Origin: a virus | IMG/VR virus record: IMGVR_UViG_3300025141_016046 | Coordinates: 1 to 64,000 of that record | Strand: one strand, 5' to 3' | Length of the DNA stretch: 64,000 nucleotides | In this document: in pieces, positions 5,568 through 55,152 of the stretch | Layout of the letters: each line of letters begins with the position of its first letter | How positions within the stretch are numbered: position 1 is the first letter of the stretch | Notes under the pieces: generated by a model | Database searches by the model: none | What the model saw: the letters and a program-made list of their open reading frames with translations, nothing else | Told to the model about the DNA's origin: nothing | Position numbers and translations under genes: made by a program

Positions 5568-6022
5568 TATCCAACTCCCTCGAACAAAGGATAGTTTACA
5601 CCTGTCTGGCTGCCAGACATAGTACCTGTTAGAACAGGAAACTGACCGGAGTCAACGCCAGAAAGACCGGCAGTAATGCTAAATGCTGTTTTGGAATACT
5701 CGGATCTCACAAATAGTGTCTTACATCTTATCTCAAGACGAGGAGAGGATCCAGAAGCAGAAACTAGAAAATAATTACTAACCTCTCCCTGGCCCTTGGC
5801 ATTGACACCATTTAAAGTAAATCCAACACGCATTGGAACGGGTCCATGATTTTCAACAAAAAAGAATCTAGTTGCATATGGAAAATCTATCCGTTGCGGT
5901 GTTGTAGTAAGAGATCCTTCAGCTCCAAGATTTTGAAGTGATGAAGTTACAAAGGGAACACCTGAAACTTGATAAGCAGGAACAAAGTTAGCTCCTGCAC
6001 CTTTTGGCCAATGTTGAGCCAT
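5567..6022 (-). CDS. Hypothetical beta-rich head protein (151 aa)
   Basis: This protein has alternating hydrophobic and polar residues and many Gly, Ser, Thr and Val, typical of a beta-sandwich structural protein; segments such as TRFFFVENHGPVPMRVGFTL and LEIRCKTLFVRS look like strands. I recognise no family. It is translationally coupled on both sides: its ATG overlaps the protease stop at 6022 and its stop overlaps the next start at 5567. Coupling to the prohead protease gene suggests a virion or prohead component, perhaps decoration or head completion, but that is inference. Confidence 0.65.
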   Translation of the reverse strand: MAQHWPKGAGANFVPAYQVSGVPFVTSSLQNLGAEGSLTTTPQRIDFPYATRFFFVENHGPVPMRVGFTLNGVNAKGQGEVSNYFLVSASGSSPRLEIRCKTLFVRSEYSKTAFSITAGLSGVDSGQFPVLTGTMSGSQTGVNYPLFEGVG

Positions 6023-6642
6023 TATTCACCTTCCCATGAAAGTATTTCATTAAATATTCTATCAACCCTGTCACTCTTAGTAAAAATCTTATCTAGGTCA
6101 TCTCTTTTTACTTCTCTACTTTCATTCATCATAAATGCACCAGGTGTAGATGGTTCAGAAACCATGTCAAAGCATATTAGTTGAAAATCATCCTGGACTA
6201 TTTGTGTATCTCCCTGGCGTTTTGTTGTACCAACACCCCTTGAAGATATTCCTAATGTTACACCGGACTCGACTAAGCTTTTAAGAATCTTACCGCTAGG
6301 TGTATCAAGCAACTCAACAGCACCGTAGCATACATCATCTTGCATATATGCCTCCCTAACAATATGAGATGCATTCTTTAGCTCTACTACAGATGAGTCT
6401 GGGTGATCACATTCCCCCAGAGCTCTATTTTCTCTTATAAACTTTTGATAGTTTCTTATTTCTCTTTCTAAGATAGATTTTGGATAGATTCTTCCATTCT
6501 GATTTAAGGTGTCAGATTTTTGAAGAACACCCTTGAGAACAATCTTTCCTCCATTTCGCTGCATATCCTCTTTGAGCGTGTCAGCGTCAATTTTGAGAGG
6601 AAGCCACTCTGTTAAAAGTTTTAGCTTATCATCACTGCTCAT
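6022..6642 (-). CDS. 21: Prohead maturation protease (T4 gp21-like)
   Basis: This serine protease is expected to digest the scaffold and trim the capsid protein during head maturation. The family pattern is clear: NGRIYPKSILEREI (about residues 49-62), the catalytic histidine in GECDHPD (His80) and the nucleophile segment GISSRGVG (Ser133/Ser134), followed by a conserved FDMVSEPSTPGAFM block (about 158-171). The length of 206 aa is close to T4 gp21 (212). Its ATG overlaps the stop of the upstream gene (TAATG), with GAGGAA as ribosome-binding site. Portal, protease, scaffold and capsid genes follow in T4 order, with extra genes between protease and scaffold. Confidence 0.92.
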   Translation of the reverse strand: MSSDDKLKLLTEWLPLKIDADTLKEDMQRNGGKIVLKGVLQKSDTLNQNGRIYPKSILEREIRNYQKFIRENRALGECDHPDSSVVELKNASHIVREAYMQDDVCYGAVELLDTPSGKILKSLVESGVTLGISSRGVGTTKRQGDTQIVQDDFQLICFDMVSEPSTPGAFMMNESREVKRDDLDKIFTKSDRVDRIFNEILSWEGE

Positions 6643-9657: not shown

Positions 9658-11283
9658 TTATTTATACACCCAATCATATTCAGGAGGTATAATGTTCCTT
9701 TCTCCCCACTTATCTTGCCATTTTCCTGGCTTTTTTCCATCTGTATCTGTCCTTACTGGGTTATAAGGTCTTGCTTCTGTGAGTGCACCTGGCATATCCC
9801 TGGGCATATCGAAAGTATTCTGCTTTACAGACATAGCCTCCAGCATTGCCTTATTTAAGGCTGCTGAATTTCTACTATGATCAGATGCTGAGTCATAAAG
9901 CCATAGGCCTATTGCAAGGCTCATGACAAGATCGTCATTATAGTTTCCCCGCATTGCCTGAGCCCTGTTCCCTTTCCAGATAAAGGTCTTCATTTCTTCA
10001 TAAAACCTAGAAGAGTAGATTCTAATCTGTTTATTTCTAATAACCTCTTCAAGCTTTGTCAAGATCATTCCGCGTGTCTTTCCGCTGGTAGTGAATCCTG
10101 CTATAGATGTATCTCCAGGTGGGATATAGTCACCAATTGTAACAGCTTTTCTTCGCCTGTAATAAAGTGCTGGATAGTTTAAGTCTTTTAGCTTTATAAT
10201 TGTAGCAAATCCATAGCTGTTATTTTCTGGACATACAAGAGCTTTATTGTATTTCAAACCAAACTGATTGATAAGAACAGCGAAGTCATCTGGGGGAATT
10301 TTTCCCTTATACTCAGCCACTACTTCTCCCTCATCAATATCAATAATATGAAAGGAGGAATAGTCCTTAGAATCACCTCTTGCAACATCTGCAGATAATA
10401 CATACCTGTGATCTGATAGTGGGTACTTCCATATCCAGACACTCATGTCACGCCCGTCTCTGTCAATTGGACTTCTTATCTGTGAGTGAAGGTATTTTAA
10501 ATCTTCATCAGTAAGAAACGTTTCCCCAGAAGAAGCAAAGTCACAAAGATACTCTTGTGCAACCTTTCTAGCAGAAAAGTTTCTCGTTTCTTTATCAAAC
10601 CATTCTTGATCTCTTTCTGGGTGAACATCCCATGGAAGTCTGATAGCTTTGAACTCATTTAGCCCAGCCTCAGCATTTGTAAAAAGCTCATGATATTGAC
10701 CGCCAACTCCGTTAGGTGTAGACAGAATAACGACTCGACCACCTGTTGAAATTGTGGGATATAATCCCATCCAAAGCTCGTCAAAATTTCTAACAAATGC
10801 AGCCTCATCAACGATAAGCAAAGACAGTGCTTCTGATCGTCCAGCATCCTCAGAGGTTGGGATAGCTTTAATTGATGATCCATGACTAAACTCTAAAAGC
10901 TGCTTATTATTAGTAACAATTTGAGGAAGAACTAGCCACGGTGGCAGATTTCTTATCATTGTTTTAACTTTTTTAATAAAGTTCTGAGCAACACTTAGCT
11001 TTGTTGCAATAACAAGAATATTCTTATCTTTTTGAAAGATTGCCAGCCATGTAGCGTATGCAGCCGTTAAAGTAGAGAGGCCTAGCTGTCTGGACTTGAC
11101 TATTATTGAAAATCTATTTTGAATAAAGTCATCTACACATTGATCCTGAAATGGATATGTGTCAAAGGGTATTAAGCCTCTGACTGGATGCTGGATCTTG
11201 GTATATTTGTTAAAGAAGTATACGGGATCCTTTCCGCACTTAATGATCTCTTTAATCTGTCTTGACTTATTTGTGGACGCCAT
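9658..11283 (-). CDS. 17: Terminase large subunit (T4 gp17-like)
   Basis: This is the packaging motor ATPase and headful nuclease. The ATPase part shows the terminase Walker A SRQLGLST (residues 64-71), Walker B LLIVDE (155-160, catalytic Glu160) and the coupling motif STPN (188-191). The RNase H-like nuclease part shows LSADVARG (Asp299), CPENN (Glu353) and YNDDLVMS (Asp450/Asp451). The length of 541 aa is slightly under T4 gp17 (610). The start overlaps the preceding stop (TAATG). No recognisable small subunit is seen; the preceding 126-aa gene is in the usual place for one but does not look like gp16. Confidence 0.95.
   Translation of the reverse strand: MASTNKSRQIKEIIKCGKDPVYFFNKYTKIQHPVRGLIPFDTYPFQDQCVDDFIQNRFSIIVKSRQLGLSTLTAAYATWLAIFQKDKNILVIATKLSVAQNFIKKVKTMIRNLPPWLVLPQIVTNNKQLLEFSHGSSIKAIPTSEDAGRSEALSLLIVDEAAFVRNFDELWMGLYPTISTGGRVVILSTPNGVGGQYHELFTNAEAGLNEFKAIRLPWDVHPERDQEWFDKETRNFSARKVAQEYLCDFASSGETFLTDEDLKYLHSQIRSPIDRDGRDMSVWIWKYPLSDHRYVLSADVARGDSKDYSSFHIIDIDEGEVVAEYKGKIPPDDFAVLINQFGLKYNKALVCPENNSYGFATIIKLKDLNYPALYYRRRKAVTIGDYIPPGDTSIAGFTTSGKTRGMILTKLEEVIRNKQIRIYSSRFYEEMKTFIWKGNRAQAMRGNYNDDLVMSLAIGLWLYDSASDHSRNSAALNKAMLEAMSVKQNTFDMPRDMPGALTEARPYNPVRTDTDGKKPGKWQDKWGERNIIPPEYDWVYK
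9659..9666 (-). promoter_or_regulatory. Candidate T4-type late promoter upstream of the portal gene
   Basis: The minus strand reads TATAAATA here, an exact match to the T4 late-promoter core recognised by the gp55 sigma factor. A gp55-like gene is present at 49096-49836. The match lies over the terminase stop codon and 46 bases ahead of the portal ATG, which leaves a normal leader. In such AT-rich DNA an 8-base match can occur by chance, and it also encodes the Tyr-Lys-stop end of the terminase, so confidence is limited. Confidence 0.4.
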
Positions 11284-11692: not shown

Positions 11693-12001
11693 CTACAGAG
11701 AGAAAGAAATAGAATCAGTAGCTCTTCTATTCTTTTCTTCTTTTATTTTATTGGCTTCTGGTCGCCATCCACTAAGCCAGGCATCTTGATTTCCATCTGC
11801 CCATAATGATCCACAAGAAAAACAGCAGCTATATTTTTCATAATACTGTCTATCTAATTCACCATTCATACAGATTTCACATAGCTCACAAAAAATAGGA
11901 ACAACCTTAAAGGACTCAATAGGCTTTATAATAGTAAATCCAAGCCTATGGTTAATTTGAATAGTGTCGTTTGAAATTTTAGTTGTACGTGATTTTGGCA
12001 T
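11693..12001 (-). CDS. Small cysteine-rich, zinc-ribbon-like protein (102 aa)
   Basis: Six cysteines are clustered in the centre: FCELCEIC (about residues 38-45) and SCCFSCG (about 58-64). Their CXXC-type spacing suggests one zinc-ribbon or similar metal site. The N-terminus is short and basic and the C-terminus is charged. There is no further match I can name. Its ATG lies inside the end of the upstream nuclease/ATPase gene (23-base overlap), so the two are probably co-translated. A nucleic-acid-binding accessory role is a guess. Confidence 0.6.
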   Translation of the reverse strand: MPKSRTTKISNDTIQINHRLGFTIIKPIESFKVVPIFCELCEICMNGELDRQYYEKYSCCFSCGSLWADGNQDAWLSGWRPEANKIKEEKNRRATDSISFSL

Positions 12002-15000
12002 CTTTTCCGCTAGATAATATATCTAAAGTATTGTCAACAGCATCTTTAACTCCATCAACATGAGAAATTATCATAATATTTTTAAACCACTTTCTCATAG
12101 AATCCAAAAGCCTATTGCATGCTGCAACATTGTTCTCATCTAGTGTACCAAATCCTTCATCAATAATAAATACATCAGGCTTGGGAAGTGATGACACATT
12201 AATCAGTGCAACTCTTATAGCCAGAGAAGATATCATCTTTTCCATTCCAGAGCCAAGTTCAATAACTCTTCTAGAGTCTCCATAATTTATAAATACATCC
12301 ATTGAGTTGGTGTCTGAATCAGCTTCTAGCTCAACTGTAAATCCCATCACACCCTGAAGAATCTTTGATATTTCATTATTGATGTAGGGTAGTTGAGATT
12401 TCATAATAAGTCTTGGAATTCCTTTTTTTGACACACCTTGCATAATCAGATCGTAGACTTCAAGCTCAGAAGAAATTTTATCTGACTCTAGCTTCTCATC
12501 TCTTAGATTTGCAAGCCTCAGTTCAAACTTTCCAGCCTGCTCAACAAGCGATATTCTCTTAGCATCTACTTGTGTTATTTTTTCCAAGATTTCAGAAATT
12601 TTCTTCTTTAGTTTAATTGCAACGCTGCCCTCTTCATCATCTACTACGTGTATTTCCATATTTGCAAGATCATCACGAGATCTATCTAGCTTTCTTTTCA
12701 GCTCACTAATTTCACTTTCTATTTCATGAACTCTAATTTTTGTAGATGAAATGGAGACCCTAAGAGAAGATTCTTTACCAATTAGGCTGTCATATCTTTT
12801 AATCTTCCCTTCAAGATCTTGTGATTCAAGAGACTTAATTCTCCTTCTTGACTCTCTGGCCTGAGAACTTAAAAGAGATATTAGGTCTTTTTGATCGTCT
12901 ATTTTAAGCTTATTTTTATGAGAATCCTTAATAAACTTACAGCTAGGAAATTCACTGCCACATGGAATTCCTTCTAGCTTTTTAACAGATTTTTCTTGAT
13001 TTTTTAATATAGTCTTCTGTCTGTCAATCTCATGCTCTAGCTTTAAAAGATCTGTCTTAGTAGATCTTAGTGTCAAGAGATCTTCCTTAATTTTATCAAG
13101 TGGAAATTGAGACTTAACAGAATCAATCTTAGAAATCTTATCCTCTGAACTAGAAATTGATGCTAAAAGGTTATCTAGATCTTTCTTAATTTCAGTAATC
13201 GATGCTAGCGTTGAAGATATTAAATTTTTCTGATTTTTAATATCAGACATGGTGACAACTTCTCGATCAGGAGAAACAGCAAGTTGTATTTTTAATTCCT
13301 GATGCTGTGATCTTAGCTTATTTAAGAGTATTTCAAGATTTGATATCTTACCCCTCTTGTCCTTTATTTGTTCTTCTTGAACTTTTATCTCAGTATCCCA
13401 GTCAATCTTTGGCAGATTCTTTGCCCTAAGTCTGATCTGAGAAGACTCCTCCTTTGCCATGAAAAACATCTGATCGAATATTTCTAAATCAAGAAATTTA
13501 TTTAAAATATTTTTTCTAGAAGTAGCCTTTTCCTTAATAAATGCATTCATCTCTCCCTGAGATGATAGAGAAGTTAATAGGAAGTCATCAGAAGATCCAA
13601 TCAAGCTTTGAATAATCTTTTCTGTGTCTCTTCTTTGCTCTCCAGACATGTCTTCTATTACAAACCCATCTTCATTAATCTTTGATAGAGAGAGATTTGT
13701 AGTTGAATACACATGTCCCTTTCTTGCTTGGTGCTTAACAGTGCTTCTTTCAATTCTATATCTGATACTGTTTACATCAATATCAACCTGTGCGTGACAG
13801 TGCTTCTTTCTAGTGTTGATAATGTGAATATTTTTAATACTCCCTCTATCAGTAGTATTATACAGGCAATACATTAGAGATCCAATTATAGAAGATTTTC
13901 CTTGTCTATTTTTTCCAAATATTCCTGTAATTCCACCTAGCTTATCAAAGTTTAGTAAATTACCCTTACCGTATCCAAAAGTATTATCAAATCCTAGACG
14001 TCTAATAGACCATCTAATATTTCTAGATACAGACTCTTTTTTTGAGATTTGACTTATGTAATTGGAAATCTTTTCTTCAATTTTTTCCCACGTATCATTA
14101 GAGATATCTGTATTCTCATAGTAATTTCTCATAAGCCGCTGATGGACAGAAAAATCTCTAAGATTTTTCTTTGAAAAAGACTCACCATCTGTTTCAATTA
14201 TTCCTGGATCAACTGCGTGATCCATTTTAAATACAATCTCTGTTGCACTTTTTTGATCCTTTAGGCGTTTATACAGTGTTGTAATGTCAGACTGATGTAT
14301 TTTTCTATCAGATCTGATTCTAAACCTAGATCTATCAAACAGGCTTCCAGTTAGTGCAAGAGTAGAATCTACACTTCCTAGCCAGTCTATTGTAACAAAG
14401 GGCTGCTTGTGCTGAATTTCATAGAACTTGACGTCAAAATCGTCTTTAGATCTAATATCCCAAAATAAGAATCCTTTTCCTGGATCTTCGCCATAGTTTT
14501 GTTGAATTGATGAGCCACAGTATGCTATTGTCTTTTCTTCATTTAAAAACTGAGATTTATGAATATCGCCTAAAAGTGCAAAGTCATAGTCAGAAAAGAA
14601 TTCAAGATCAACTTCACCCTCTATCTCCCAGTCAATGTCTGTCTTAGAGCCCCAGACACCTCCATGATAAAGTGCAATATTTACCTCATCTTTAACAGGT
14701 GTAACATCCTTCCACCCCTCTTCGTCAAAGCATGAAAAGACGCACCAGTTAAACCCTGTTACACCCGTAGGGTAAACGCCTGATTCCTTATAGAGATGAA
14801 CTCTGTGATTATCCAGAGCTGACAGGATTGGACTAATAGCATCCTGGCGATCTCTATTGTTAAGAAGGCCATCGTGGTTTCCTAAAATAACATGAACTTC
14901 ACATATTTTAGACAGCTCAGTAAACCACCAGCAAAGACAATCAATCAACTCAGGAGAAATCCCCTGGGTCTTAGAATGAACTATATCCCCACCTATATAG

Positions 15001-15116
15001 ATAACATCTGGGTCGAGTTCCCTAACTTGCTTTATAAAAGCTGAGAACGACTCTATGTATTCTTCATGACGAGAAAGTCCACGCCAGTGGACATCTGCTA
15101 TGTGGACTATCCTCAT
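11979..15116 (-). CDS. Fused SbcD/Mre11-SbcC/Rad50 recombination nuclease-ATPase (gp47-gp46 fusion)
   Basis: This single 1045-residue chain joins two proteins that are separate in T4 (gp47 and gp46). Residues 1 to about 335 are a calcineurin-type nuclease: ADVH (Asp8, His10), GGDIVH (Asp44), GNHD (80-82), His151 and GDIHK (183-187, where Mre11 usually has GHxH). From about 365 follows a Rad50/SMC-type ATPase: Walker A GKNRQGKSS (401-409), long coiled-coil arms, a hook-like pair Cys719 and Cys726 (CX6C instead of the usual CXXC), a signature-like ELGSGMEK (953-960) and Walker B FIIDE (983-987) with a TLDEN D-loop. The family processes double-strand breaks for recombination-dependent replication. 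The ATG directly precedes the first motif, so the start is secure, though no good ribosome-binding site is visible. Confidence 0.93.
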   Translation of the reverse strand: MRIVHIADVHWRGLSRHEEYIESFSAFIKQVRELDPDVIYIGGDIVHSKTQGISPELIDCLCWWFTELSKICEVHVILGNHDGLLNNRDRQDAISPILSALDNHRVHLYKESGVYPTGVTGFNWCVFSCFDEEGWKDVTPVKDEVNIALYHGGVWGSKTDIDWEIEGEVDLEFFSDYDFALLGDIHKSQFLNEEKTIAYCGSSIQQNYGEDPGKGFLFWDIRSKDDFDVKFYEIQHKQPFVTIDWLGSVDSTLALTGSLFDRSRFRIRSDRKIHQSDITTLYKRLKDQKSATEIVFKMDHAVDPGIIETDGESFSKKNLRDFSVHQRLMRNYYENTDISNDTWEKIEEKISNYISQISKKESVSRNIRWSIRRLGFDNTFGYGKGNLLNFDKLGGITGIFGKNRQGKSSIIGSLMYCLYNTTDRGSIKNIHIINTRKKHCHAQVDIDVNSIRYRIERSTVKHQARKGHVYSTTNLSLSKINEDGFVIEDMSGEQRRDTEKIIQSLIGSSDDFLLTSLSSQGEMNAFIKEKATSRKNILNKFLDLEIFDQMFFMAKEESSQIRLRAKNLPKIDWDTEIKVQEEQIKDKRGKISNLEILLNKLRSQHQELKIQLAVSPDREVVTMSDIKNQKNLISSTLASITEIKKDLDNLLASISSSEDKISKIDSVKSQFPLDKIKEDLLTLRSTKTDLLKLEHEIDRQKTILKNQEKSVKKLEGIPCGSEFPSCKFIKDSHKNKLKIDDQKDLISLLSSQARESRRRIKSLESQDLEGKIKRYDSLIGKESSLRVSISSTKIRVHEIESEISELKRKLDRSRDDLANMEIHVVDDEEGSVAIKLKKKISEILEKITQVDAKRISLVEQAGKFELRLANLRDEKLESDKISSELEVYDLIMQGVSKKGIPRLIMKSQLPYINNEISKILQGVMGFTVELEADSDTNSMDVFINYGDSRRVIELGSGMEKMISSLAIRVALINVSSLPKPDVFIIDEGFGTLDENNVAACNRLLDSMRKWFKNIMIISHVDGVKDAVDNTLDILSSGKDAKITYN

Positions 15117-15157: not shown

Positions 15158-15592
15158 CTAGCCTTTCATTCTATTAAGCTTGTACTCAAGATAGTGCTTA
15201 ATTTTTCCAATATCATTATCCATTACAGATATTTTTGATTGAACCCATTCAGGAAGATCATCGTCGTCATGGAGCATATCGTGAAGGCTTTGAGCATATC
15301 TTGCAACCTTGAATAGCTGGCTCCTTGTCATTCGTGCCTCTCTATCTCCTGAAGGGCTGTCACCATAGCTTAGGTTTCTTCCGTCTTCATCATGATCAGA
15401 ATGCCTTGCACCACATGGTCCGACAGGATGACCCAGTTTACATTTTTTACAAGTAGGGTTTGGTGACTGTCCCGGGATGTCTCTTTCTGGCTGAAGGCCT
15501 AAGACATCAGGCCTTGAAAAAACAGCATCCTCTTCAAGATCTGCCATTACTTCTCTAATAATATTTCTTAGCTGAGACTTGCTTATCTTCAT
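15158..15592 (-). CDS. Hypothetical protein with docking-like N-terminus and helical C-terminus (144 aa)
   Basis: The function is unknown. The N-terminal helix (KISKSQLRNIIREVMADL) resembles that of the 175-aa protein at 5040-5567. A middle region has clustered Cys/His (CKKCKLGHPVGPCGARH, about residues 48-64), possibly a metal site. The C-terminal part (about 88-140) is helical with LPEWVQSKISVMDNDIGKI, a pattern I have seen in small proteins of large marine phages but to which no function is attached. An AGAGGA ribosome-binding site precedes the ATG. It sits between primase and the recombination nuclease. Confidence 0.65.
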   Translation of the reverse strand: MKISKSQLRNIIREVMADLEEDAVFSRPDVLGLQPERDIPGQSPNPTCKKCKLGHPVGPCGARHSDHDEDGRNLSYGDSPSGDREARMTRSQLFKVARYAQSLHDMLHDDDDLPEWVQSKISVMDNDIGKIKHYLEYKLNRMKG

Positions 15593-15628: not shown

Positions 15629-16609
15629 CTAGAGAAGAGATCCACTTCTAATGGCGCCAATTCTCATCTTAAGCCTCTGATTTGGATTCCAGGGTGCGGA
15701 TTCTTTCTTAATATTTTTAAACTCTTCTTTTGACATGGAGCCAACATCTGAAAAATCACCCAAGCACGCCATTCTAACATCACACCCATAGGAAGTTAGA
15801 AGCTTAGCTATTTCCTGTTCTTTTATTTTCATATCTGAATCCATTGCTAGAATGACTGGTGTTTGATTGGATACAATTCTAGAAAATAAAAGGTAGTCAT
15901 CTCTTAAGCTTGACCCTAACATGCACGTAGAGTTTTCTCCTGCTTTAAACATGTCAAATGGACCTTCAACAATGACAAGCTCTTTTTTCCAGTCGATATC
16001 AATCTCATTAAAGACAATATTCTTTTTATTGTTGTTGGAGTTGATATACTTTCTTCTAACCCCTCTATCAACAGCCCTGGTTACAAAATAATTTAACTCA
16101 CCAAATAAATCAAAAGAAGGAACTATTACCCTCCTTTTAAACCTTCCGCTTCTTGAAGTTCCAAGCCTATATCTCCAAAGATCTCTCTCACATAACCCAC
16201 GAGATCTAAGATACGATATGCATGATCTTATGTCCGGATCTATTGATTTTTGAAAATCTGCTAAAAGAATAAAATCTTCAGGAAGTCTAATTGCATCCTT
16301 GTCTTCAATAATTGAAATCTTATCTATTGTAGAACTAGATCCAGAATACTTTAAAAAAACCTCTATATCATCTCTTGTTCCGTGCTTCTTTAGAACAGAA
16401 AGTATTGTCTTCCCTTTTAGCCCACATGACCAGCAATGGCATTGCCATGTATCTAAATTAACATAAAACTTCTTTTTATTTCCCTTGCCGCACTGTGGGC
16501 AGGAAAATATAGCGTTTTGCTGCTTTCTATCAAGTTCACATGAGCCAAAGACTCGTCTTAGAAATGATATCTTTTGTGTAAATGTAACCACAATAATATC
16601 ATAACACAA
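15629..16609 (-). CDS. DNA primase, DnaG/Toprim type (T4 gp61 counterpart)
   Basis: This enzyme makes RNA primers for lagging-strand replication. The N-terminal zinc-binding part has CPQC (residues 37-40) and CHCWSC (57-62), a CXXC...CXXC ribbon. The Toprim part shows LVIVEGPFD (Glu215) and ILAMDSDM (Asp257, Asp259). The length of 326 aa is close to T4 gp61 (342). The start is uncertain: the longest reading begins at a TTG (16609), a GTG six codons later is also possible, and no clear ribosome-binding site is visible for either. No replicative helicase gene lies beside it in this window. Confidence 0.88.
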   Translation of the reverse strand: MCYDIIVVTFTQKISFLRRVFGSCELDRKQQNAIFSCPQCGKGNKKKFYVNLDTWQCHCWSCGLKGKTILSVLKKHGTRDDIEVFLKYSGSSSTIDKISIIEDKDAIRLPEDFILLADFQKSIDPDIRSCISYLRSRGLCERDLWRYRLGTSRSGRFKRRVIVPSFDLFGELNYFVTRAVDRGVRRKYINSNNNKKNIVFNEIDIDWKKELVIVEGPFDMFKAGENSTCMLGSSLRDDYLLFSRIVSNQTPVILAMDSDMKIKEQEIAKLLTSYGCDVRMACLGDFSDVGSMSKEEFKNIKKESAPWNPNQRLKMRIGAIRSGSLL

Positions 16610-16622
16610 CTTGATATTATTT

Positions 16623-17165
16623 TCAAATAATTAATCCTGCTCTTGAAATCACGTATGCGTCTGCCATGTCATAGCTTATAGGATCTAAAACGCACTGATT
16701 TTTTCGAGGTCCGCTTTTTAAAATTTTTGTAGGCCATTTGAAGTCATCTAGCTCACCTGATGCCCATTCTATGATTTGATCTTTTGTAGGCTTTCCGCCG
16801 TCCTTTTTTCTTTTTATCTTTATTCCGAGAGCCTTTCTTGCCGTGTTTACGTTTATGAACATTGGAGAAAAGTAAAACTCTTCTTGTGCAAGGTAGCTAA
16901 CAATTCCATTAAATCTTGCAAGTGTTAAAAGTGTCTTTGCAGAAGAAAGGCCAGGCCTAAACGCCTGTAAATTTTCTTCAATACACACCTTTTCAATTCC
17001 ATATTCAATATTCAATCTGGATAATTCACGTCTAACTTTTTGAGCTTTCTTAAATATTGTCTTATCTTTTGATAGGACAACAGATCCCATGTCAATTAAA
17101 TTACCACTTGGCCCAATAATACACCAACCTGTGCAACTAGTAGATATATCAAGTCCTAAAATCAT
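16623..17165 (-). CDS. RuvC-like Holliday-junction resolvase
   Basis: This RNase H-fold nuclease probably cleaves branched DNA before or during packaging. The RuvC pattern is visible: LGLDISTSCTGW (Asp6) at the N-terminus, VCIEENLQA (Glu63/Glu64) in the middle, a KPTKDQII helix and a C-terminal YDMADAYVI with Asp166 and Asp169. The length of 180 aa matches the bacterial RuvC family. T4 uses the unrelated endonuclease VII for this job, so this is a functional replacement. The ATG overlaps the stop of the preceding large structural gene (TAATG at 17165), tying it to late transcription. Confidence 0.85.
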   Translation of the reverse strand: MILGLDISTSCTGWCIIGPSGNLIDMGSVVLSKDKTIFKKAQKVRRELSRLNIEYGIEKVCIEENLQAFRPGLSSAKTLLTLARFNGIVSYLAQEEFYFSPMFINVNTARKALGIKIKRKKDGGKPTKDQIIEWASGELDDFKWPTKILKSGPRKNQCVLDPISYDMADAYVISRAGLII

Positions 17166-53500: not shown

Positions 53501-53521
53501 ATGATTAGTGATGAAGAATAC
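53501..53521 (+). repeat. Direct repeat unit at the start of both sulfotransferase genes
   Basis: The first 21 bases of copy 1 (53501-53521) are identical to the first 21 bases of copy 2 (54325-54345), and similarity continues with scattered changes through most of both genes. This is the trace of a tandem duplication that has since diverged. Confidence 0.75.
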
Positions 53522-54328
53522 CAGGAAAGAATTCAAGATCTAAATAATAAAGAGTTTAAAAACCTATATTTTATTCATATTCCTAAGGCAGCTGGGTCAT
53601 ATATAAAACAATTTCCAATCAAGTGGGGGCAAAGTCACGAGCAATTTCACAGCTTTTCTCCAGTAGTCGGACCCTGGGGGACTACTGTTCCAGAGGAGCT
53701 TTTACTACCAAAGTCAGATCCCCAATTACTTCTTGAAAAAGGAGAAATAATATCTGGATACAAGAAGATAGAGCCGACCCAAATATCAAAAAAATTCTTA
53801 AAATTTGCAACTATTAGAAATCCGTTTGACTATCTAGTAAGTTGTTATTTTTCTAAAATGGTTGGAGTAGAATATGTCAATCTAGATGGGTGGCCGTTAA
53901 AGAAAGTTAGCACAGGGGACATAGAGGAATTCTTAATAAGCTTTTCAAAGAGTGAGAGAATGTACCTTCAATCTAGAAAAAATCTATTTCACCAAATATT
54001 CGACAATGAAGGAAGGTGTTGTGTAGATGTTCTAATTAGAGTAGAAAGAATAGATGAGGGACTCAGCCTTCTCAATAAAGAGGTATTTAGCAATAAGCTC
54101 AATATATCAAAAAAAGATCACAAAAATATTACGGGTGAAAGAGAGATAAATGGTAAAAGACAAGGATATGAGAAATTCTATACAAGTAAAACTAAAAAAG
54201 AAATCAAGAAAAAAATTAAAAGAGAGCTTAGCATGTTCGAATACAGTTTCAAGGGTCCTACAAATAAAAGACCCCTTGTATTCTTAGATAGAAATAAAAA
54301 ATACGATATTTTTAAGGATTTTAAATGA
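53501..54328 (+). CDS. Sulfotransferase-like protein, tandem copy 1 (275 aa)
   Basis: The start of the domain has FIHIPKAAGSYIK (about residues 24-36), the 5-prime-phosphosulfate-binding loop pattern of membrane-type sulfotransferases (Sulfotransfer_2-like), and FATIRNPFDYLVSCYF (about 102-117) is the typical 3-prime-phosphate region with Arg106. Such enzymes move sulfate from PAPS to sugars or other acceptors. There is no membrane segment, so it would be cytoplasmic. It is one of only two plus-strand genes in the window. It overlaps its paralogue by ATGA. Both copies are intact, so neither is a remnant. The acceptor is unknown. Confidence 0.75.
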   Translation: MISDEEYQERIQDLNNKEFKNLYFIHIPKAAGSYIKQFPIKWGQSHEQFHSFSPVVGPWGTTVPEELLLPKSDPQLLLEKGEIISGYKKIEPTQISKKFLKFATIRNPFDYLVSCYFSKMVGVEYVNLDGWPLKKVSTGDIEEFLISFSKSERMYLQSRKNLFHQIFDNEGRCCVDVLIRVERIDEGLSLLNKEVFSNKLNISKKDHKNITGEREINGKRQGYEKFYTSKTKKEIKKKIKRELSMFEYSFKGPTNKRPLVFLDRNKKYDIFKDFK

Positions 54329-55152
54329 TTAGTGATGAAGAATACAAGAAAAGAATTCAAGATCTAAAAGATAAGAAATTTAAAAAGCTTTATTTTATTC
54401 ATGTTCCAAAGGCAGCCGGATCTTACGTAAGAGAGTTTCCGATTCCAACTTCTGTTCACGGAAACCATGAGCAGTTTCACAACAATTCTTCATATAGCAT
54501 CGGAAGGATAGTTGATGGAGCAATGCATTCAACAAGGCAGTTACTTGAAAGAGGTGACATAGTTACTGGATATTCAATGATAACTAAGGCCAAAAATAGC
54601 AATATAAGCCAAGATTCATTAAAGTTTGCAACTGTTAGAAATCCGTTTGACTACCTAATAAGTTGCTATTTTTCAGGAATGGTTGGTGCACCCGGTCAGA
54701 CTATTAGATGCAATAATGATCATGGCAGCTATAAGACATACTGCGAGCACTGCAATGGTTTTGGATATGAAAGGTTCTTATCTGAATTCAGCAGAGGACG
54801 GATGTTATACGAACCTTGTAGAAAAAATCTATTTCATCAAGTATTTGACAATGAGGGACGCTGTGGTGTTGACCTGCTTATTAGATCAGAGTATGTTGCT
54901 GAGGGATTGCAGCAGCTAGGTAAGATAATATCTCTTAAAGATGAAGCTAAAAATATTCCAAAAGATCATGCAAATTCTTCTTCTAAAAGAATGAAAAGAG
55001 ACTATAGAGAGTTCTACTCTCCCAAGATAAAAGATATGGTAGAGAGAAAGGTTAGAAACGAGCTTGATATGTTTGGTTACACTTTTGACGGACCAGTTGA
55101 CAAAAGACCCTTTGTATTTCTAGATAGGGATAAAAGATATGATATCTTCTAA
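54325..55152 (+). CDS. Sulfotransferase-like protein, tandem copy 2 (275 aa)
   Basis: A full-length paralogue of the preceding gene: it shares the N-terminal MISDEEY block, the HVPKAAGSY loop, FATVRNPFDYLISCYF, the RKNLFHQVFDNEGRC segment and the C-terminal KRPFVFLDRDKRYDIF. It differs by a short central insertion with three cysteines and a histidine (CNNDHGSYKTYCEHC), which might bind a metal. AAGGA stands six bases ahead of its ATG. It ends tail-to-tail with a minus-strand dehydrogenase gene, the two stop codons overlapping. Distinct acceptor specificity of the two copies is likely but inferred. Confidence 0.75.
   Translation: MISDEEYKKRIQDLKDKKFKKLYFIHVPKAAGSYVREFPIPTSVHGNHEQFHNNSSYSIGRIVDGAMHSTRQLLERGDIVTGYSMITKAKNSNISQDSLKFATVRNPFDYLISCYFSGMVGAPGQTIRCNNDHGSYKTYCEHCNGFGYERFLSEFSRGRMLYEPCRKNLFHQVFDNEGRCGVDLLIRSEYVAEGLQQLGKIISLKDEAKNIPKDHANSSSKRMKRDYREFYSPKIKDMVERKVRNELDMFGYTFDGPVDKRPFVFLDRDKRYDIF

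What the first reader, a model, noticed from the sequence alone, without database searches (positions are those of the whole stretch)
11979..15116. Mre11-type nuclease and Rad50-type ATPase fused in one chain
All nuclease motifs (residues 8-186) and all ATPase motifs (401-995) are in a single uninterrupted frame of 1045 codons. In T4, bacteria and eukaryotes they are separate subunits. The hook is CX6C instead of CXXC and the fifth nuclease motif reads GDIHK. A fused form would fix the 1:1 ratio and change how the complex opens.
Basis: partly seen in the sequence, partly recalled or inferred. Interest (0 to 1): 0.7.

Follow-up and report, generated by a model that had tools for sequence, protein, structure and literature searches.

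The report
One-chain Mre11-Rad50 in marine phages
A phage gene really does join the DNA-cutting and the ATP-burning halves of a DNA-break repair machine in one protein; such joined forms were described in 2011, but here the joined form is the standard version in a large, old group of marine phages.

Summary
One open frame on the minus strand (11979-15116, 1045 aa) carries a complete Mre11/SbcD-type nuclease and a complete Rad50/SbcC-type ATPase. It is not a lost stop codon: of 114 distinct viral contigs from two scans, 111 carry the same fusion in one frame and 3 are cut by a contig end. The junction is under purifying selection, and the tether between the two parts is 6 or 7 residues in all 111 rows. 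In separate trees of nuclease and ATPase heads, 24 fused phage proteins form one clade against 13 split pairs. In ten large related records it is the only gene found of either kind, and all ten also encode a RecA-type recombinase. The class is not new: Yoshida et al. 2011 (PMC3175470) described Mre11/Rad50 fusions in Mimivirus, a phage, plasmids and eukaryotes, with the same Asp-for-His change in motif V, and argued that marine relatives belong to phages. New here: the phage context, single origin within the phages sampled, and a CX6C hook in 108 of 111 rows. Likely role: DNA-end processing for recombination and replication, as T4 gp46/gp47.

The parts
11979..15116 (-). Fused Mre11/SbcD-Rad50/SbcC gene, 1045 aa, stop included
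   Evidence: fused relatives
14412..15116 (-). Nuclease domain, residues 1-235 (boundary approximate, from the predicted structure)
   Evidence: Metallophos 1-178; SbcD chain 7dog_B, Z 24.2 over 1-299
14559..14570 (-). Nuclease motif V, GDIH (residues 183-186): Asp in place of the first His of GHxH
14217..14411 (-). Capping domain, residues 236-300 (approximate)
   Evidence: secondary structure; one search match to SbcD nuclease-plus-cap chain 7dog_B
14037..14153 (-). Helix-loop-helix (322-332, 340-360), position of the Rad50-binding region of Mre11
   Evidence: the assignment rests on position and form (compare PMC3175470)
14016..14036 (-). Tether between the last Mre11-part helix and the first Rad50-part strand, residues 361-367
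   Evidence: 7 residues in 91 and 6 in 20 of 111 rows
13437..14015 (-). ATPase N-lobe, residues 368-560, with Walker A and Q-loop
   Evidence: (3av0_B, Z 30.4 over 367-1045)
12447..13436 (-). Antiparallel coiled coil, residues 561-890 (approximate)
12939..12962 (-). Hook, C719-x6-C726
11982..12446 (-). ATPase C-lobe, residues 891-1045: SGMEK signature, Walker B, D-loop, H1019
15629..16609 (-). DNA primase gene upstream; the conserved neighbour
   Evidence: phrog_47, 6.4e-38; primase within the locus in 106 of 108 loci with over 2 kb upstream
16623..17165 (-). RuvC-like Holliday junction resolvase
   Evidence: phrog_159, 8.7e-15
15158..15592 (-). 144-aa ORF between primase and fusion, no family match
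11693..12001 (-). 102-aa Cys-containing ORF that overlaps the end of the fused gene by 23 bases
   Evidence: no family match
9658..11283 (-). Terminase large subunit
   Evidence: phrog_2, 6.4e-50; found in 113 of 138 loci

Best explanation
The gene encodes a single-chain SbcCD (Mre11-Rad50) DNA-end-processing enzyme of a T4-like tailed phage, and it is the phage's only such enzyme. SHOWN: one polypeptide; all catalytic residues of both halves kept across the family; old and conserved fusion; no second SbcC or SbcD-type gene found in ten large related records, all of which have a RecA-type gene. INFERRED: two chains pair through the ATP-bound ATPase heads, the nuclease domains and the hook, giving the usual 2+2 machine from one kind of subunit. 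The 6-7-residue tether makes each nuclease half sit on the ATPase half of its own chain. ATP binding closes the heads and restrains the nuclease, hydrolysis on a DNA end lets it cut, and the resulting 3' single strands feed the phage RecA-type recombinase for recombination-dependent replication and break repair, as proposed for T4 gp46/gp47.
For: Fusion in one frame in 111 of 114 distinct marine-type contigs (3 cut by contig ends), 19 of 20 Mel-JY01-type and 10 of 10 LR756501-type contigs. dN/dS under 0.17 in every region with a finite ratio, junction included, in five pairs. Seventeen catalytic positions invariant in every row that reaches them: 108 to 113 of the marine rows, 19 or 20 of the Mel-type rows. 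Predicted structure (mean pLDDT 83.7) matches Rad50 3av0_B (Z 30.4, rmsd 4.7, 358 aligned) and SbcD 7dog_B (Z 24.2, rmsd 3.6, 277 aligned). Single SbcC-type and single Metallophos hit in 11 of 11 records, the window's own included; RecA over cut-off in 10 of 10. Neighbours: primase and RuvC-like resolvase. No conserved internal start near the junction: at most 41 of 111 rows have a start codon at any column from 300 to 399, and at most 3 with a Shine-Dalgarno-like stretch.
Against: No biochemistry exists for any of these proteins. pTM is only 0.55, so the placing of nuclease on ATPase is not shown. Two cultured phages of the sister branch, pT24 and PAU, have no RecA hit, so RecA is not a constant partner. 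The hook is CX6C, not CXXC, so hook pairing is assumed. The gene lies in the head/packaging cluster, not with replication genes as in T4, which would also fit a packaging-linked task.
Confidence: 0.75

Rival explanations
1. Artefact: two adjacent genes joined by a sequencing or assembly error at the junction.
For: Split pairs exist in T4, SPO1-like, Twort-like and T5-like phages.
Against: 111 of 114 distinct contigs are fused, the rest being contig ends; purifying selection runs across the junction; tether length constant.
Confidence: 0.01
2. The fused chain is made but acts as two separate subunits, because it is cut at the tether by a phage or host protease, or because the ATPase half is also made from an internal start.
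For: A prohead protease gene (6022-6642) lies in the same gene cluster. Column 329 holds a start codon in 41 of 111 rows.
Against: Only 11 of 111 rows have any start codon with a Shine-Dalgarno-like stretch in 325-372, though the same loose test also finds one before residue 1 in only 36 of 105 rows, so this is weak evidence. Cleavage was not testable.
Confidence: 0.08
3. It serves mainly DNA packaging or clearing of branched DNA before packaging, together with the RuvC-like resolvase, rather than replication.
For: It lies between primase/RuvC and terminase/portal in the head gene cluster, and this order recurs: terminase downstream in 80 of 94 loci with over 3.5 kb downstream.
Against: The most constant neighbour is a primase (106 of 108). 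In Mel-JY01 the primase stays adjacent while the terminase lies elsewhere.
Confidence: 0.14
4. It is a defence or anti-competitor device related to Lamassu, whose LmuB subunit is Rad50-like.
For: PADLOC model PDLC03859 (LmuB) matches 368-1027 at 8.2e-26.
Against: No other Lamassu gene was seen among the neighbours scanned, though not every window ORF was scanned against PADLOC. The gene is the only SbcC/SbcD-type gene found in these records and coexists with RecA. Nuclease and ATPase best match SbcD and Rad50 structures.
Confidence: 0.04

Closest known systems
Mre11/Rad50 fusion proteins, Mimivirus R555 type (Yoshida, Claverie and Ogata 2011, PMC3175470)
   Same: N-terminal Mre11, C-terminal Rad50 in one chain; GDxxH in motif II and Asp for His206 in motif V; predicted to belong to marine phages, with primase genes on the same scaffolds. 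The best fold matches in BFVD are long giant-virus proteins (Yasminevirus, Harvfovirus, Tupanvirus, Catovirus and others; 18-21% identity).
   Different: Here the chain sits in a T4-like phage head gene cluster, its coil is shorter (1045 against 1351 aa for R555) and the hook is CX6C. R555 itself could not be aligned here.
Fused 'metallo-phosphoesterase' of jumbo phages pT24, PTm1, PTm5, MA9V-1, MA9V-2 and PAU (phrog_35725)
   Same: Same domain order in one chain of about 1300 aa; sister branch in both trees
   Different: Longer coil, CXXC hook in the four checked (pT24, PTm1, PAU, MA9V-1), 15% identity for pT24, no RecA hit in pT24 and PAU
Microcystis phage Mel-JY01 protein WWT39521.1
   Same: Fused, 1066 aa, primase gene just upstream, GDIH and SGMEK
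   Different: CXXC hook; about 29% identity
T4 gp47 + gp46
   Same: Same two activities by motif; phage recombination enzymes
   Different: Two genes with two small genes between them; GHFH, CPTC hook
E. coli SbcCD
   Same: Fold of both parts: 7yzo_D Z 29.7, 4m0v_A Z 24.0
   Different: Two chains; far longer coil (SbcC 1048 aa)

Membership tests
Mre11/Rad50 fusion proteins (PMC3175470) | Mre11-like domain N-terminal and Rad50-like domain C-terminal in one ORF | tested here: met
Mre11/Rad50 fusion proteins (PMC3175470) | Capping and helix-loop-helix regions plus a short linker between the two parts | tested here: met
   (predicted structure; linker 6-7 residues, against 9-12 estimated in the paper)
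Mre11/Rad50 fusion proteins (PMC3175470) | Common descent with Mimivirus R555 | tested here: inconclusive
   Shared motif changes and BFVD fold matches; no tree with R555 could be built
Mre11/SbcD nuclease | Five phosphoesterase motifs with the metal ligands | tested here: met
   D8, H10, D44, N80, H81, H151, H186 invariant; position 184 is Asp, not His, in 113 of 113 marine rows
Mre11/SbcD nuclease | ATP-regulated Mn-dependent nuclease activity | not testable with these tools
   needs purified protein
Rad50/SbcC ATPase | Walker A, Q-loop, signature, Walker B, D-loop, H-loop on two lobes split by a coiled coil | tested here: met
   the signature reads SGMEK in place of SGGE
Rad50/SbcC ATPase | CXXC zinc hook | tested here: not met
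   CX6C in 108 of 111 marine rows, 3 other spacings; CXXC in 13 of 13 split rows and in all 5 checked of the pT24/LR756501 branch. So it is filed as a fusion protein with a Rad50-like half, not as a canonical Rad50
Lamassu (LmuB) | Partner genes LmuA/LmuC | tested here: inconclusive
   Only the fused protein was scanned against PADLOC

The most novel reading that the evidence does not exclude
Tailed phages carry an ancient one-chain Mre11-Rad50 enzyme that arose once by fusion, has stayed fused across marine phages and jumbo phages of several hosts, works as an obligate homodimer with each nuclease locked by a 6-7-residue tether to its own ATPase, and in the marine branch evolved a new CX6C hook; giant eukaryotic viruses share this same enzyme lineage.
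Probability: 0.4. Interest if true: 0.6.

Novelty: new member of a known kind. Interest (0 to 1): 0.42.

Why it matters
A one-chain Mre11-Rad50 with a short natural tether is a ready tool for structural work on how ATP controls this nuclease: stoichiometry is fixed and cis contacts are forced. It also ties the R555-like marine sequences of 2011 to tailed-phage genomes with a defined gene neighbourhood, and raises a specific question about how giant eukaryotic viruses and phages came to share a fused enzyme. The CX6C hook gives a natural variant for testing what hook geometry does.

Tried and rejected
Artefact at the junction: rejected. Novelty of the fusion as such: rejected after reading PMC3175470. 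GDIH as a mark of fusion: not exclusive, since the split T5-like PG07 protein reads GDLH, and a few fused rows read ADIH (5 of 145). A second SbcC or SbcD gene in related records: none found. Fused relatives on plasmids: no plasmid match covers 80% of the query. A group I or other Rfam intron in the interrupted LR756508 gene: no match. An intein model at the start of L131: no match. The closest isolate by terminase, Flavobacterium phage immuto, gives no SbcC-type match, so it informs nothing on the split state. Fold search by Foldseek gives low TM-scores (0.2-0.5) because of the coil; I rely on the domain-wise second look. Broader literature searches for later reports of phage fusions or of a CX6C hook found none in the held open-access library; subscription papers and preprints were not searched.

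Limits: the trees hold 24 fused and 13 split rows that I chose; Bacillus phage 0305phi8-36, Mimivirus R555, the Clostridium kluyveri, Deferribacter and eukaryotic fusions were not available, so one origin is shown only among the sampled phages. LR756508 (interrupted gene) and L131 (N-terminus missing) were left out of the trees. The relatives are the best 80 of 576 confirmed, so weak or split relatives may lie below the cut.

Full report
Observation. The reading frame is real and lies on the minus strand, ATG at 15116 to TAA at 11979-11981, 1045 codons. Residues 1-178 match Pfam Metallophos above its cut-off (47.2 against 21.5 bits); the rest matches SbcC/Rad50 models: phrog_77 at 1.1e-53, TIGR00618 sbcc at 1.8e-22 but far below its own cut-off, Pfam SbcC_Walker_B below cut-off. 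Solved SbcC and Rad50 chains match at 1.8e-12 or weaker.

Not an artefact. A first scan of IMG/VR gave 45 contigs with a relative; a second, with an alignment, listed the best 80 of 576 confirmed. After removing 11 contigs seen twice, these are 114 distinct contigs. In 111 one frame spans both parts; the other 3 (L041, L044, L045) end at a contig end inside the gene. Two more branches were sampled: 20 contigs like Microcystis phage Mel-JY01, 19 fused in one frame and one (L233) in two overlapping frames, and 10 contigs like huge phage LR756501, all fused. Against five near relatives, dN is far below dS in every region; all finite ratios are below 0.17, including residues 331-372 around the junction (dS is near saturation, so the ratios are rough). 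The tether counted from residue 361 to 367 is 7 residues in 91 and 6 in 20 of 111 rows.

Anatomy. AlphaFold2 with 42 aligned relatives gives mean pLDDT 83.7 but pTM 0.55, so domains are trustworthy and their mutual placing is not. It shows a nuclease with capping domain, a helix-loop-helix at 322-360, a first ATPase strand at 368, two long coil arms with the hook between them, and the second ATPase lobe. The second-look alignment puts residues 367-1045 on Rad50 3av0_B (Z 30.4, rmsd 4.7, 358 aligned) and residues 1-299 on SbcD 7dog_B (Z 24.2, rmsd 3.6, 277 aligned). Across the distinct marine-type rows, 17 catalytic positions are invariant wherever the row reaches them (108 to 113 rows). Motif V has Asp at 184 in 113 of 113 marine rows and 19 of 19 Mel-type rows. 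The hook is CX6C in 108 of 111 marine rows and has other spacings in 3 (L029, L032, L089). All 13 split phage and bacterial SbcC proteins that I looked at, and five fused proteins of the pT24/LR756501 branch, have CXXC. So CX6C is a trait of the marine branch, not of fusion. The signature is SGME[KR] in the fused rows tallied, against S-x-GE in the split ones.

Descent. Trees of the nuclease part and of the ATPase heads, each with 24 fused and 13 split rows, put all fused rows on one side of a branch (99/97 and 98/97), with the same inner order: pT24/PTm1/PAU/MA9V-1 with LR756501, then Mel-JY01 types, then the marine types. This fits one fusion followed by joint descent of both halves in the phages sampled. 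The best BFVD fold matches are long giant-virus proteins: six of the first seven are named, all from giant viruses of eukaryotes (18-21% identity). Mimivirus R555 carries the same two departures, GDxxH in motif II and Asp for His206. GDxxH is also seen in SPO1-like and Twort-like split proteins.

Genome context. The window is part of a 75,845-base virus record. The gene lies between a primase and RuvC-like resolvase on one side and terminase, portal, protease and major head protein of T4 type on the other ('T4 type' is my reading of the PHROG families). Of 138 loci examined after dropping duplicates, 108 have over 2 kb upstream and 106 of these hold the primase; 94 have over 3.5 kb downstream and 80 of these hold the terminase. 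The 2011 authors saw primase genes on marine scaffolds with R555-like sequences, which fits this neighbourhood. In ten related records of 123-267 kb there is one SbcC-type hit and one Metallophos hit each, both in the fused gene, and a RecA-type gene in 10 of 10. pT24 and PAU have no RecA hit, which is against a fixed partnership.

How it most likely works. Shown: one chain, both catalytic sets intact, sole enzyme of its kind in these records, RecA alongside in the marine and Mel-type branches. Inferred from established knowledge of Mre11-Rad50: dimer of chains, ATP-driven head closure, nuclease release on hydrolysis, 3' strands for the recombinase. The 2011 paper estimated 28 A between the Mre11 C-terminus and the Rad50 N-terminus in the Thermotoga complex, or 9-12 extended residues. 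A constant 6-7-residue tether is somewhat shorter (though the helix and strand ends used here are predicted), and I take it as a reason to expect cis packing. A packaging-linked role is the main rival because of the gene's place in the head cluster.

Known or new. Fusions are a known kind (PMC3175470; I read parts 1 to 3 of 5 of the text). Fused forms also sit unremarked in databases, as 'metallo-phosphoesterase' (phrog_35725, pT24, PTm1, PAU, MA9V-1) and 'AAA domain containing protein' (Mel-JY01). Reviews seen only as passages (PMC7824862, PMC13282480, PMC11448039) speak of SbcCD in jumbo phages without mention of fusion in those passages. I therefore file the window's protein as a new member of a known kind, with a clade-specific hook as its own feature.

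Noticed in passing
L048:4665-5582 (LR756508.1): The fused gene of this 484-kb phage is interrupted just after GDIHK by about 0.9 kb holding a 305-aa ORF with a TnsA-like endonuclease domain (Pfam 5.8e-6); looks like a homing element inside the catalytic motif, no Rfam intron found.
   Followed up: partly
L131:3-115: Upstream of the conserved motif III region the frame reads like the C-terminal end of an intein ending at GN|C; the contig starts inside it. Resemblance recalled, no model matched.
   Followed up: partly
L233:3304-6544: Only relative seen whole whose fusion is in two overlapping frames (224 and 860 aa): frameshift, error or a true split.
   Followed up: no
window 53501-55152: Two tandem sulfotransferase-family genes on the plus strand, opposite to nearly all other genes, next to NeuB, cytidylyltransferase, UDP-sugar dehydrogenase and glycosyltransferase-like genes: a surface-sugar island in a phage.
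   Followed up: no
L129 and L130: Fused genes on contigs binned as Halobacteriovorax and Methylococcaceae MAGs; probably phage contigs, possibly a hint at hosts.
   Followed up: no
window 11693-12001: Small Cys-containing ORF overlapping the fused gene's end; a relative is found next to the fusion in 89 of 138 loci; no family.
   Followed up: partly
PHROGs phrog_77 and phrog_100: Both profiles are much longer than T4 gp46/gp47 (T4 gp46 starts at column 293 of 967; gp47 ends at 377 of 989), as if fused proteins had been built into both families.
   Followed up: no
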